Shown: positions 53,171 through 59,747 of the stretch, piece by piece | How positions within the stretch are numbered: position 1 is the first letter of the stretch | Layout of the letters: every line of letters begins with the position of its first letter | Assembly: GCA_016490735.1 (NCBI GenBank) | Contig: JAEMWC010000083.1 | Coordinates: 345,001-409,000 of the forward strand | DNA: 64,000 nt | Source: Pachyseris speciosa | Lineage: Eukaryota > Cnidaria > Anthozoa > Scleractinia > Pachyseridae | Reading direction: 5' to 3' | Position numbers and translations under genes: made by a program | Notes under the pieces: generated by a model | What the model saw: only the letters and a program-made list of their open reading frames with translations | What the model was told of the DNA's origin: nothing | The model's database searches: none

Positions 53171-53600
53171 CAGTCTATATCTTGAGTTTAAAGGCTTAAT
53201 TTTAACAGGATCATTGATGGAAGACGATGCTAATTCCGCTCGTACGGTGGACGGACCACGGAAGGCAGGGCCGCGTTTTTAGGTACGTGTAGTGGCTGGC
53301 TTTTCTAGCTTTTATCAGCCAATTTCCTTTGGCACTTACAACAACGAATTGAACAAACGAAATGACAACGTCTAAGTTTAATAAGACGTCTTGTACCATT
53401 ATACAGGACCGTACAGCTGTACGATCTGCAGCGCAGAACCTAACATCTAATTTCAAATGACGTATTAAACCAGCAAGTCGCCCCGCTATTGTATAGGATA
53501 CTTCACAAATTAATATGATCAAGTAAGCTGAAGCCACTCAAAAGGCACTAAGGCCACAAGGTAGCGGGCATTACCCCTTAAATCTACCAAAGCAAAGATT

Positions 53601-53681
53601 GAGCCCAAGCATTAGCAGCCATGGACAGCTGTTTCGGCCTTGTTAGGCCTCATCAGCATGGCACAGCTAATGCTCAGGCTC
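53601..53681 (-). ncRNA. Type I hammerhead ribozyme, apparently intact
   Basis: Read on the - strand, the core is CUGAUGA, stem II GGCC-UAACAA-GGCC, then GAAAC-AGCU-GUC, with every invariant core position present. Predicted cleavage follows GUC, between 53624 and 53623. Stem I is CCAUG/CAUGG, an internal loop (UGUG against CU), GCAUUAGC/GCUAAUGC and GAGCCUGA/UUGGGCUC, so it is long and carries the internal loop that usually contacts loop II. Stem III is minimal, A-U and C-G closing AGCU, as in Penelope and retrozyme hammerheads that tend to act as dimers. Self-cleavage is inferred from the fold, not shown. Confidence 0.87.
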
Positions 53682-53967
53682 AAGTACCCACATATCAATA
53701 AAACAAGCAATGAAAACGTAAAGCTTGTGGGATGTGGTTGGAGTGACAAGGATACTTCACAAATTAATGTAATTGATCACATTAATTTGTGAAGTATCCT
53801 TGTCACTCCAGCCACATCCCACTAGCTTTACGTTTTCATTGCTTGTTTTATTGATATGTGGGTACTTGAGCCTGAGCATTAGCTATGCCATGCTGATGAG
53901 GCCTAACAAGTTGGGATAACTGCTGATTGGCCCACGTAGCAGCATCTTCACCCCCCAAGTTGTCAGC

Positions 53968-55522: not shown

Positions 55523-58500
55523 CTAAAAGTTGCCACCTTAAATGCTCGGGGGTTAATTACCCCCGCTAGATGTGATCTAACCTTACACGAATTGTCTCGG
55601 GCTGCTTTTGATATTGTCTTATTACAGGAGACTCATGTCTCTTGCAAATTACAAGCTGATAAAATTGCGCGGAAATGGTCTGGTGATTGTCTCTGGTCTT
55701 TTGGGAGTGGCTGGTCGGCCGGTGTTGGCTTGCTTGTCTCTCCTAGATTCCAGAGCAAGATTTCTCCATATGTTTTTGATTCTGATGACAGAGTTATTAG
55801 TGCATTGGTGCTTTTGGCGTCACACAAATTTAATATTGTAAACATTTACGCTCCAAATACCGTTTCTGAGCGCAGGGCCTTCTTCGAAGGATTACATTCC
55901 TATTTTCTTTCTCCTGCTCGTTTGATCGCTGGCGATTTTAATTGTATTCATAATGTTCTTGATCGCTTGCATTGCTCTGAAAACCGCCTGCCTGATAAAC
56001 GTGTTTTTCGTAATTTCATGTCTGATTGCTCACTTGTTGACATTTGGCGTAAATAAAATCCTCGTGGAATTTCTTTTACTTGGGTTAACAGTTCTCAGGC
56101 ATCGCGCCTTGATCATTTTTTGGTGTCTCAAAGTATAGTGAAATACGTTTGCTTAAACAACGTTTACCGTGTCCTTTTTCGGACCATGATTTTGTTGTTT
56201 TAAATCTGTCTGTTGATAATCGCCCTGGTCCTCGAAACAGTATTTGGAAATTTAACACTGCCCTTTTGTCTGATGTAGACTTTAAGCGTGAATTGTCAGC
56301 GCTCATTAATAGTCACAAGGGTCGTATTGCTGATTTCTGTTCTCTTGGGAAATGGTGGGATAGTTTAAAACTTGTTATCCGCAACGCATGCATTGGTTTT
56401 TCTTATCGTAAGCGTAAAATTGCCAATCTCGAACGTAATCGCTTGACTAAACGATTAATCTGGGCCAAGCATGCCTTTTCACAAGGTGACCATTCTATGT
56501 CTTCGGAAATAAGAGACCTCGAAAGTGCCCTTTCGTCCCTCCTATTACGAGAGGCGGGGGCGCGAAAATTCGCTCACGTGCCAAATGGATCGAGGAAGGT
56601 GAAAAACCAACTCGGTATTTCTTTCGGCTCGAGCAAAAGCGAGCTGAGAAGAATTCGTTTGATTGTCTCTTCGATTCAAATGGTGTGGAGAAAACGTCAC
56701 AGTCTGATGTTGAGTCTATTCTTGTCGATTTTTATAAAAATCTTTTCACCAAAGATGACCTTGACGTACAGATTCAAGCTGAAATAATTGACGACCTTGA
56801 ATTTTCATTAACGGACCTTGAACGCGAAAGCTGTGAGGGTGAAATAACGAAAGATGAGCTTTTTTCTGCCCTGAAAGGCCTTCAGACTGGTAAATCGCCT
56901 GGGTCTGATGGTCTTCCGCCTGAATTTTATGTCTTTCTGGGATGATTTGGGCGACATTCTCGTTTTAGTTCTATACGAAAACTATCGTTTGGGGGTCCTA
57001 ACTGACAGCCAGCGTGAGGGCCTCTTGTGCTTGCTGTACAAAAAGGATGATAGGCGATTGCCGAAAAATTGGCGTCCAATATCTCTCCTAAACACATATT
57101 ATAAACTGGCATCCAAGGTAATCACAGAGCGTTTAAAACCGGTGATGAGTTCTATTGTTCATCACGATCAAACGTGCGGCGTAGTGGGAAGATCGATTTA
57201 TTCTAACTTACAGTTAATCCGTGATACACTCGATATGATTGACAAAACTGATGAAACTGGCTTCTTGTTACGCTAGACCAGGAAAAAGCTTTTGATCGCG
57301 TTGACCATGGTTTTCTTATGCGCACTCTTTCTAAATTTGGTTTTGGTCCTTCCTTTTGTCGCTGGGTGCGTCTCTTTTATAATGATGTCTTTTCACGTAT
57401 CATCTGTAATCATCTGTAATGGCAATCTCACTAACGCCGTTTTCCTTGAGAGGGGAGTGAGGCAGGGTTGTCCCCTGTCTCCCCTTCTTTATGTCTTGGT
57501 ATCGCAGGTTTTGTCAACTCAAATCAGGAAATGTAAGCAAATCGAGGGCTTCCGTCTTCCCGGAGCTGGGGTTCTTCAATTTAAAATCTCCCAGTACGCC
57601 GATCATGCCACTAATTTTGTTAAAAGCGAGCTTTCTCTCTGTCATCTTTTGCGTGTTGTACATAAGTATGAACTAGGCTCAGGCGCCAAGCTCAACTCCA
57701 AGTCAGAGGCTATGTGGCTTGGACGGTGGAGAACGAATGGCGCCTCTCCTTTCGGTTTAAATTGGGTATCGAAAATGAAAATTTTAGGGTTTATTTTTCA
57801 AATGGCCTAGTATCTGTCGAGTCGGATAACTGGAAATCGAAGCTTGACAAACTAGAAACCGTTCTTAATTTATGGAAACAGAGAGAGCTGTCTTTTTCAG
57901 GCCGTGCAATGATTGTTAATGTACTTGGCGAAAGCCGGTTTCGGCACGTGGCCAAAATTATCGCGCCTGCCAATTGGGTTTGTGATCGTTTTCATCGTCT
58001 CGTATGGTCTTTTGTGTGGAAAGGTAAAACGGAGAGCGTCAGTCGGCAGCGTTGCTGCGCGCCTATCGAACTTGGTGGCTTAAACGTTGTTGACTTTCGT
58101 TCTAAATGTGTTAGTATTCGTCTGTCTTGTTTTTGTAGTCTCCGCGATAATTTTGGTGGCCACAATTGGCATTATCTGGCCGTTATTTTGTCCGGAATCG
58201 CCTAGCAAGACTTGACGCGCGATTTGCTTTTGCTTCGAATCTGGTTCCGTCTTCATCGGAGCCTTCTCTTTTTTACCGTAGATGTCTAAACATTTTCCAG
58301 CAGCTATTTGATAAGTATGGTGCGTTACCTGACGATCTTTCTTGTAAGGAAATTTATTTGCTTTTATTTGATTTCCCACGTGCTGCGCCTAGGTGTGCCG
58401 GCTTGTGGAGGTCTGTTGTGGGCCGTCCCATAGAGCGGTGGACCTCGGTTTGGCGCAAATCGCGCCTTAAGTTAATTGAAAATCGAAAAAATGATGTCTT

Positions 58501-59248
58501 ATGGCTTCTCTTGCATAATGCAGTTCGTGTCAGGTCCATTTTTAAATCCTGGGGTTATATTAGTTCTGATTGTTGTGCTGTGTTCTCGCGCAAGGACACT
58601 TCTGAACACTGTTTTGTTTCCTGTCCTAGAGTTATCCGGGTCTGGAATTATTTTGTTCCCTTTCTTTCTCGTCTTCGGGGCTCTCCTTTTGTGTTACATA
58701 CATACATACATACATACATCACATTATTTACCCTCGGATTTTAGAGTAGCTTGAGCAGCTAATATCTCCGAGCATTTAATCATCATATGAGAGATAGACC
58801 ATCACACCGGGAACTACGTCCCCTACTCTTTTCGAACAATGTGTGGGTTCTTTTACGTCCCACAGAATCAATTATGAAGAGTTGAGAGACGGGGCCTACG
58901 GTTTATCGTCCTTATCCGAGAAGACTAGAAAGTCTAACCATTTGCAGATGTTATTACAAAGGCAGCACTGTTCTCTTTCCTCTCTCTGATGTTCCTTCTT
59001 CCCCTACTCTTCCTATCTTTCACTATTTAGTTGCTTCGATCTTGTTTTTTGTTTGGCGAACCCGAAACCTAGCGACTTTCCGAAATAACGTTTTAGATTC
59101 TCGCGCCATCATTGATATGATTATTAAAGATGTCAAATTGCGTATCCGCTGTGATGCTTTTGACAGAGTTAGGTTTTTTTGGTCCACTAATAATATTATT
59201 GCTCTGTCAATGCAGATAACGAGATTGTCTTTAATTTGTAGGTTGTAA
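55523..59248 (+). pseudogene. LINE ORF2 (endonuclease + reverse transcriptase), multiple lesions
   Basis: MLKVATLNARGL starts 8 bp after the ORF1 stop. Endonuclease motifs LLQETHV, NIYAPNT and LIAGDFNCI are present. A TAA at 56054 lies in a frame that continues NPRGISFTWVNSSQASRLDH. Frameshifts follow near 56150, 56570, 56925, 57268 and 57415; the last sits on a tandem duplication of ATCATCTGTA. Reverse-transcriptase motifs are KSPGSDGLPPEFY, LDQEKAFDRVDHGF (A), GVRQGCPLSPLLY (B) and QYADHATNFV (C, second Asp replaced by His). The C-terminus, interrupted by an insertion at 58695-58975, ends MIIKDVKLRIRCDAFDRVRF. Tx1 affiliation is inferred. Confidence 0.82.
58695..58975. repeat. SINE-like insertion with (TACA)n end, copy 2
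   Basis: It interrupts the LINE frame between GSPFV and LFPLSDVP. It begins with TACATACATACA and contains CCGGGAACTACGTCCCCTAC and GTGTGTGGGTTCTTTTACGT, shared in part with 43930-44150. It has no coding content. The host LINE was already in place when it arrived. Confidence 0.65.
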
Positions 59249-59747
59249 TCCTCCTTCCTCTCTCAGGGCATATTCTTGTCCGGTTTCTGCAATTTTTCTT
59301 TTAACACGTATTAGTGATGTCCTTTAATTAGTAATGTCCTCGCTTGCTTTAATTGGTATACTAATTATGCAATTGTCATTTTGAACTTGATCTTTTGTAA
59401 TTCGTGCTTTTCGTTTTGCGTTCGCCGTCATATTGTATTGTATTTGCTCTTTTTATCAACGACCCTTTGGCCGTTGTGTAAATAAATTTTATCAAAAAAA
59501 AAAAAAAACAGCTGTCCATGGCTGCTAATGCTTGGGCTCAATCTTTGCTTTGGTAGATTTAAGGGGTAATGCCCGCTACCTTGTGGCCTTAGTGCCTTTT
59601 TAGTGGCTTCAGCTTACTTGATCACATCAATTTGTGAAGTATCCTTGTCACTCCAGCCACATCCCACAAGCTTTACGTTTTCATTGCCGCTATTGTATAG
59701 CTTTGGCAAAGACATATTGTCAAATCAGATATACTTCCTTGTGAATT

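What the first reader, a model, noticed from the sequence alone, without database searches (positions are those of the whole stretch)
53497..59686. Head-to-head (palindromic) pair of hammerhead-ribozyme monomers behaving as one mobile unit
Two inverted copies of a 254-bp unit, each with a hammerhead, are enclosed by one 14-bp direct repeat. Seen directly: the arms, the 254-bp periodicity in both arms, the hammerhead core and the flanking repeat. Known: metazoan retrozymes are short non-coding hammerhead repeats normally in direct tandem. Inference: the palindrome inserted as a unit, perhaps after copying of a double-stranded or snap-back intermediate, so both DNA strands encode a ribozyme.
Basis: partly seen in the sequence, partly recalled or inferred. 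Interest (0 to 1): 0.85.

Follow-up and report, generated by a model that had tools for sequence, protein, structure and literature searches.

The report
Ribozyme repeats inserted back to back
This is a small hammerhead-ribozyme repeat, with thousands of copies in one animal genome, that usually sits as two outward-facing halves inside one duplicated target site, with one end at each of two fixed positions as in that genome's Penelope-like elements, so it was likely copied from RNA at both ends of one DNA break; its ribozyme core is also the precise insertion site of two LINE families.

Summary
The palindrome is real: a 254-bp type I hammerhead repeat in two head-to-head arms inside one 14-bp target duplication, with a 5.6-kb LINE splitting the right arm's hammerhead. 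In the genome (983.7 Mb; 9,571 hammerhead-core matches) this layout is usual: 25 of 39 places examined are head-to-head with 3' sides outward, 18 of 25 with an exact 11-16 bp duplication. The 25 joints all differ, but outer ends fall at two fixed monomer positions, ~130 (A) and ~170 (B); 21 of 22 classifiable copies have one A and one B end. GIY-YIG (Penelope-like, PLE) elements of the same genome obey the same rule (19 of 19). A published anole PLE protein extends both cut strands from two adjacent RNA sites. So the palindrome most likely forms anew at each insertion: PLE machinery primes reverse transcription at both cut ends on retrozyme RNA, probably circular, and the two cDNAs are joined. 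The helper PLE is not identified. Second result: the nested LINE is site-specific for the hammerhead core (30 of 30 3' ends read, 92 of 92 5' ends); a second LINE-type family targets the same core (at least 80 of 84 exact 3' ends).

The parts
53483..53496 (.). left copy of the 14-bp target-site duplication CCGCTATTGTATAG (last two bases AG also fit the element)
   Evidence: 4 occurrences in the genome, control 2
53495..53768 (-). left arm: retrozyme monomer in antisense, outer end m129 (class A), about 1.08 units
53618..53662 (-). intact type I hammerhead ribozyme (CTGATGA core starts at 53656 on the - strand)
   Evidence: RF00163 33.9 bits, E 8.3e-7, gathering score 34
53769..53769 (.). inverted joint (left arm m110, right arm m99, one unmatched base)
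53770..53910 (+). right arm, first part, m99 to m239; holds the 5' half of the split hammerhead (CTGATGA at 53893)
53911..59508 (+). nested LINE; zf-CCHC, APE-type endonuclease, RT and zf-RVT domains in broken frames, poly(A) at its 3' end; inserted between m239 and about m247 of the hammerhead (As at the 3' junction cannot be assigned)
   Evidence: junctions
59506..59687 (+). right arm, second part, from the 3' half of the split hammerhead (AGCTGTCC at 59510) to outer end m171 (class B)
59687..59700 (.). right copy of the target-site duplication (first base C also fits the element)

Best explanation
The head-to-head pair is a hammerhead retrozyme that was likely inserted by Penelope-like (PLE) machinery copying retrozyme RNA from both ends of one staggered DNA cut. 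Inferred steps: a PLE-encoded RT and GIY-YIG endonuclease cuts both target strands about 11-16 nt apart; one 3' end primes reverse transcription at monomer position ~130 (A) and the other at ~170 (B), on the same retrozyme RNA or RNAs of one sequence, probably a circle made by hammerhead cleavage and ligation; both antisense cDNAs grow inward, from tens of bases to about 8 units; their ends are joined through microhomology or filler, which makes a new palindrome with 3' sides outward; filling the stagger gives the duplication. Shown here: the arms, the duplications, the one-A-one-B rule in retrozymes and in the genome's GIY-YIG elements, the variable joints, and unit likeness within many loci. 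In this copy a LINE that uses the hammerhead core as its insertion site is nested in the right arm.
For: 25 of 39 places head-to-head, 3' sides outward; 11 of 11 mixed-strand clusters among the first 100 exact hammerheads are '- then +'. Exact 11-16 bp shared strings at the ends of 18 of 25. 21 of 22 classifiable copies A/B, 1 B/B, 0 A/A (random expectation 5.5e-6). GIY-YIG elements of the same genome: 19 of 19 with one short and one long end, 20 of 21 close neighbours '- then +' (counted by hand). 25 different joints; 8 of 17 simple joints with at least 2 nt of microhomology against 16% for random phases. Unit differences: same arm 1.46% (208 pairs), opposite arms 1.36% (171 pairs), different loci 3.21% (13,674 pairs). 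Published: anole PLE protein cuts and extends both strands and starts at two adjacent internal RNA sites whose interval is the PLE tail (PMC11167929, main text read).
Against: The helper is not identified: the GIY-YIG family I examined has an A-B interval near 90 nt, not 40, and no more than chance similarity to the monomer, and I read no RT domain in it. Frangieh et al. saw no difference in start site between top and bottom strand in vitro, call the tail optional, and found hammerhead cleavage unnecessary and unprocessed RNA the main substrate, which speaks against a strict one-each rule and against a circular template. 14 of 39 places are not head-to-head by my criterion, two of them (C576, C601) single arms with 9- and 20-bp shared strings; C1057 is B/B without a duplication; C1, C87 and C16 lack a classifiable second end. 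Seven of 25 head-to-head places gave no duplication by script. Unit likeness fails in several loci (window same arm 4.1%, C39 3.9%, C140 3.8%, C259 5.4%). No RNA data.
Confidence: 0.74

Rival explanations
1. Snap-back or self-priming: one cDNA is primed at the target, runs to its end, folds back and copies itself, giving a palindrome (the reading offered for rotifer Penelope elements, on an antisense template; PMC3846280, passages).
For: Published for head-to-head PLE copies; some joints are near-palindromic in phase, for example C1 (m62/m59), C259 (m105/m102) and the window (m110/m99); opposite arms of a locus are alike.
Against: A fold-back copy should have arms of equal extent and one kind of outer end; here the ends differ by about 40 nt in 21 of 22 and arm lengths are unequal, e.g. 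355 and 2,088 in C1170.
Confidence: 0.12
2. LINE-type twin priming: a LINE enzyme moves the retrozyme and inverts part of it by accident.
For: Twin priming in L1 gives inverted segments (recalled); LINEs are numerous here.
Against: The second start of L1 twin priming is variable and affects a minority of copies (recalled); here the layout is the norm and both starts are fixed; I saw no poly(A) at the printed ends; the pattern matches GIY-YIG elements of the same genome.
Confidence: 0.05
3. Two independent insertions in opposite orientation, or an assembly fold-back artefact.
For: Palindromes can arise as sequencing chimeras; one left flank is an assembly gap (C1094).
Against: One duplication encloses the whole pair in 18 of 25; flanks and duplications differ between copies; orientation is always '- then +' in 11 of 11 clusters.
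Confidence: 0.03
4. A DNA transposon with terminal inverted repeats (MITE-like).
For: Inverted ends, duplications of narrow length range.
Against: The two ends are offset by about 40 nt, arms vary from tens of bases to several tandem units and every joint is new; a cut-and-paste element keeps its inside.
Confidence: 0.02

Closest known systems
Metazoan non-LTR retrozymes (Cervera and de la Pena 2020, PMC7229834; passages read)
   Same: Type I hammerhead in a short (254 bp) low-GC repeat, direct tandem units inside arms, target duplications longer than 4 bp, many copies; PLEs named there as a strong candidate for mobilisation.
   Different: Described as direct tandem repeats; 'inverted' and 'head-to-head' do not occur in the main text. 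Here head-to-head arms with two fixed, offset ends are the usual form.
Penelope-like elements (PMC3846280, passages; PMC11167929, main text)
   Same: Head-to-head inverted arms, one end longer by a 'tail', a hammerhead upstream of the ends, short target duplication; same rule in this genome's GIY-YIG elements.
   Different: The retrozyme arms match only the 254-bp monomer and show no ORF of their own in what I examined; A-B interval about 40 nt here, about 90 nt in the GIY-YIG family read.
L1 twin priming (recalled)
   Same: Both target ends prime on RNA; inverted segment with 3' sides outward.
   Different: In L1 an occasional event with variable second start; here the usual form with fixed starts.
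Site-specific LINEs with an APE endonuclease (Tx1 and R1 clades; PMC4640811, passages)
   Same: The nested LINE has an APE-type endonuclease and joins one repeated target at fixed positions on both sides.
   Different: [quoted passage not shown] a ribozyme core is not among them.

Membership tests
metazoan non-LTR retrozyme | type I hammerhead ribozyme | tested here: met
   RF00163 33.9 bits, E 8.3e-7, 0.1 bit under the gathering score
metazoan non-LTR retrozyme | short repeat (about 150-450 bp) of low GC in direct tandem | tested here: met
   254 bp, 44.9% GC; tandem units in several arms, e.g. C1229, C1170, C1094; but the whole copy is usually head-to-head
metazoan non-LTR retrozyme | target duplications longer than 4 bp | tested here: met
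   11-16 bp in 18 of 25 head-to-head places
metazoan non-LTR retrozyme | no LTR, primer binding site or polypurine tract | not tested
   none sought
metazoan non-LTR retrozyme | self-cleavage and circular RNA in tissue | not testable with these tools
   no RNA data held
PLE (autonomous) | own ORF with RT and GIY-YIG endonuclease | tested here: not met
   the arms of the window copy contain only monomer sequence; the ORFs inside belong to the LINE; so the retrozyme is not a PLE, though it carries the PLE insertion pattern
PLE insertion pattern | head-to-head arms with a tail on one end | tested here: met
   21 of 22 A/B; GIY-YIG elements of the genome 19 of 19
PLE insertion pattern | a PLE of this genome with the same start-site sequence and interval | tested here: inconclusive
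   one GIY-YIG family compared; chance-level matches only, interval near 90 nt
GIY-YIG elements as PLEs | GIY-YIG domain together with RT | tested here: inconclusive
   GIY-YIG above cut-off; the RT part was not obtained (searches turned down)
site-specific LINE | fixed junctions in one target across copies | tested here: met
   3': 30 of 30 read of 40 scored; 5': 92 of 92
Tx1 clade LINE | position in an RT phylogeny | not tested
   only domains: zf-CCHC, Exo_endo_phos, RVT_1, zf-RVT; L1 endonuclease relatives in the PDB

The most novel reading that the evidence does not exclude
Penelope-type integration is two-ended by rule: each insertion starts reverse transcription from both cut strands, one at RNA site A and the other at site B, and animal retrozymes exploit this with a circular template, so every new copy is born as a fresh head-to-head palindrome. 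The hammerhead itself has become a dedicated home for at least two LINE families, a three-level chain of dependence: LINE on retrozyme on PLE.
Probability: 0.58. Interest if true: 0.9.

Novelty: new variant of a known kind. Interest (0 to 1): 0.82.

Why it matters
How animal retrozymes move is open; PLEs had only been suggested. Two fixed outer ends, one of each per insertion and shared in pattern with the genome's own GIY-YIG elements, give a sequence signature that can be tested in any genome and in vitro. It also suggests a rule for PLE integration (one start site per DNA end) where the tail was called optional. Separately, a LINE whose exact landing site is a ribozyme core adds a new kind of target for site-specific retrotransposons, and each such insertion breaks a ribozyme.

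Tried and rejected
Snap-back copying, LINE twin priming, two separate insertions or an assembly artefact, and a TIR DNA transposon were weighed and put behind the main reading (see rivals). Similarity of the monomer to two GIY-YIG copies (L087, L088): only chance-level matches of 9-20 nt. A self-cleaving fold at the LINE 5' end: I looked by eye and ran Rfam on 53890-54060, no ribozyme. MicroRNA-precursor matches at the palindrome are below gathering scores and come from the long hairpin (my reading). Organism: assembly size and contig number recall the coral Pachyseris speciosa; one paper search did not confirm it, so it is a guess.

Limits. The 39 places are hand-grouped from the best matches to the left arm (40 of 714 candidates scored), so they lean to young copies. 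Six more places, all with a single exact hammerhead at the head of the list on contig C1 (one already held was skipped), gave 3 of 6 head-to-head by script (L125, L126, L127; the last with outer ends m130 and m104), 2 with a second arm of about 13-17 nt seen by eye only (L129, L130) and 1 single (L128). C262 has a 25-nt opposite arm that my length rule left out of the 25. In C476 a low-complexity duplication of about 12 nt was seen by eye and is not among the 18. Class A (m104-138) and B (m160-184) were set after seeing the ends. Duplication strings include bases that also fit the element. GIY-YIG pairs: 20 fetched, C56 dropped (left end N), 19 counted; C15 and C49 share flanking sequence, so 18 or 19 are independent. 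Of 40 LINE 3' ends scored 30 were read; 26 by an exact pattern, 4 by eye with one or two changes; 26 have unique flanks (L071-L074 share one, L061 and L063 share one). 21 of the 40 3' ends have a listed 5' junction within 20 kb on the same strand (one typed coordinate, C40, is off by 1 kb, without effect). The list shows 100 of 130 junctions, so 80 of 84 is a minimum.
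Full report
What is there. Window 53495-53768 is a 254-bp repeat in antisense and 53770-53910 the same repeat in sense; the sense arm resumes at 59506-59687 after a 5.6-kb insert. The whole is enclosed by CCGCTATTGTATAG (53483 and 59687), a 14-mer that occurs 4 times in the 983.7-Mb genome, 2 for the reversed control. I number the monomer m1-m254 from the first base after the predicted hammerhead cut. The left arm's hammerhead is type I (RF00163, 33.9 bits against a gathering score of 34, E 8.3e-7). The right arm's is split after m239 by the LINE.

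The family. The 33-nt hammerhead core has 9,571 matches with up to 3 mismatches on the two strands of the genome and none for the reversed control. A search with the left arm gave 123 hits (40 of 714 candidates scored), which I grouped by hand into 39 places and parsed with a two-strand circular alignment to the monomer. In 25 of 39 an antisense arm is followed by a sense arm, 3' sides outward. Of the other 14, three (C207, C196, C493) are cut at the hammerhead core by ends of the two LINE families, one (C165b) by another sequence near the same place, one ends in an assembly gap (C1094), C262 has a 25-nt opposite arm, C576 and C601 are single arms with shared end strings of 9 and 20 bp, and C248, C433, C1410, C296, C201 and C18 are single arms without a convincing duplication. 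Among the first 100 exact hammerheads listed, grouped into 70 clusters, 11 hold both strands and all 11 read '- then +'. Six further places gave 3 head-to-head by script, 2 with a very short second arm seen by eye, and 1 single.

The ends. Oriented by their ends, most head-to-head copies align as duplication + AGGATACTTCAC... and ...TTTACGTTTTCATTGC + duplication. One arm stops at m~130 (A), the other at m~170 (B). Of 22 copies in which both ends can be classed (A m104-138, B m160-184, ranges set after seeing the data), 21 have one of each, 1 has B/B, 0 have A/A; in three more (C1, C87, C16) only an A end can be classed. Random choice would give 21 or more of 22 with probability 5.5e-6. Exact shared strings of 11-16 bp enclose 18 of 25. 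The right arms beside LINE copies are a separate sample: of 25 with unique flanks, window excluded, 15 end at m126-135, 8 at m166-180, 2 elsewhere (m106, m123).

The joints. All 25 inverted joints differ; no two lie within 3 nt of each other on both sides. Of 17 simple joints 8 have at least 2 nt of microhomology, against 16% for random phases; the other 8 of the 25 have 5-58 nt of filler. Arm lengths are often very unequal, e.g. 355 and 2,088 bp in C1170. So palindromes are made anew at each insertion. Over all loci, units of one locus differ by 1.46% within an arm (208 pairs) and 1.36% between opposite arms (171 pairs), against 3.21% between loci (13,674 pairs); in C1229 all 34 pairs are identical, but C39, C140, C259 and the window do not show the effect in the same arm. 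Both arms of many loci thus come from one template sequence. A circular RNA copied several times round is the simplest reading (inference); a homogeneous multimer would also do.

The PLE parallel. GIY-YIG (PF01541) has 5,249 candidates in this genome; the 150 scored are all above the cut-off. Counted by hand, 21 neighbours in that list lie within 6 kb, 20 of them '- then +' and one '+ +'. I fetched both ends of 20 such pairs. C56 has Ns on the left; in 19 of 19 others one end is short (...CTTTTATACTCTCT) and the other about 90 nt longer (...GCTTGAACATTTGATA); 16 of 19 share an 11-12 bp string at the ends, C261 9 bp, and C29 (7) and C607 (5) no convincing one. The two copies read in full carry a hammerhead-like motif upstream of the ends. 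I could not read an RT domain in them, so calling them PLEs rests on the GIY-YIG domain and this layout. Frangieh et al. 2024 (PMC11167929, main text read) report that an anole PLE protein cuts and extends both strands and starts reverse transcription at two adjacent internal RNA sites whose interval is the PLE tail; they also saw no difference of start site between strands and no need for hammerhead cleavage. Arkhipova et al. 2013 (PMC3846280, passages) describe head-to-head pLTRs with a tail on one of them and favour self-priming. Cervera and de la Pena 2020 (PMC7229834, passages) call PLEs a strong candidate for moving retrozymes; 'inverted' and 'head-to-head' do not occur in its main text. 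My searches of the held library showed no report of head-to-head retrozymes; most subscription papers are not held.

Model. Both 3' ends of a staggered cut prime antisense cDNA on retrozyme RNA, one at A and one at B; the cDNAs are joined head-to-head; the stagger becomes the duplication. The cut, the priming, the circle and the helper are inferred; the anatomy is shown. The GIY-YIG family examined is not shown to be the helper.

The LINE. 40 copies of its 3' end were scored of 145 candidates. I read 30: in 30 of 30 the poly(A) is followed by the hammerhead from about m247 (CAGCTGTCC or a close variant), in ribozyme sense. The 5' junction GAGGCCTAACAAG|TTGGGATAACTGC occurs 97 times and the LINE 5' end 92 times, with 92 of 92 at the junction and reversed controls of 0. 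The site spans stem II and the GAAA of the catalytic core; 4 nt of target are lost, or up to 7 if the As belong to the LINE. Broken frames hold zf-CCHC, APE-type endonuclease, RT and zf-RVT domains, with L1 endonuclease as nearest solved relative. A second family ends ...CTTATACAA before m241 (CCGAAAC): 130 junctions; at least 80 of 84 exact 3' ends lie at it, the other four at C71 and C508. A piece of L033 beside it reads like the region before the RT of the first LINE (by eye). Searches showed no report of a hammerhead-targeting LINE, with the same limits of the library. Placement in the Tx1 clade is my guess, not tested.

Verdict. The interpretation needs one change: the palindrome does not travel, it is most likely made by two-ended insertion. 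The arrangement is usual for this family, and the hammerhead is also a dedicated LINE target.

Noticed in passing
53911-59508 and genome-wide: The nested LINE is site-specific for the retrozyme hammerhead: 30 of 30 3' ends read and 92 of 92 5' ends lie in the ribozyme core.
   Followed up: yes
L033:929 and L034:1949; 130 junctions genome-wide: A second LINE-type family joins the same hammerhead core a few bases away (before m241).
   Followed up: partly
L049:1392 (C165b): A third, different sequence joins the hammerhead near m247, possibly another family with the same target.
   Followed up: no
L046 (C601) and L036 (C576): Single-orientation copies with 20-bp and 9-bp shared end strings, exceptions to the head-to-head rule.
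   Followed up: no
37040-37209 and 37800-37969: An inverted pair of minisatellite arrays (11/32-bp period), 89% complementary, 590 bp apart.
   Followed up: no
4087-4159 (-), 6224-6296 (+), 5943-6015 (-): Two tRNA-Thr genes (GGT and AGT anticodons) by ARAGORN and a third tRNA by Rfam only.
   Followed up: no
L119 (C56) and L055 (C1094): Assembly gaps (N) at one end of head-to-head or tandem copies, as if palindromes broke the assembly.
   Followed up: no
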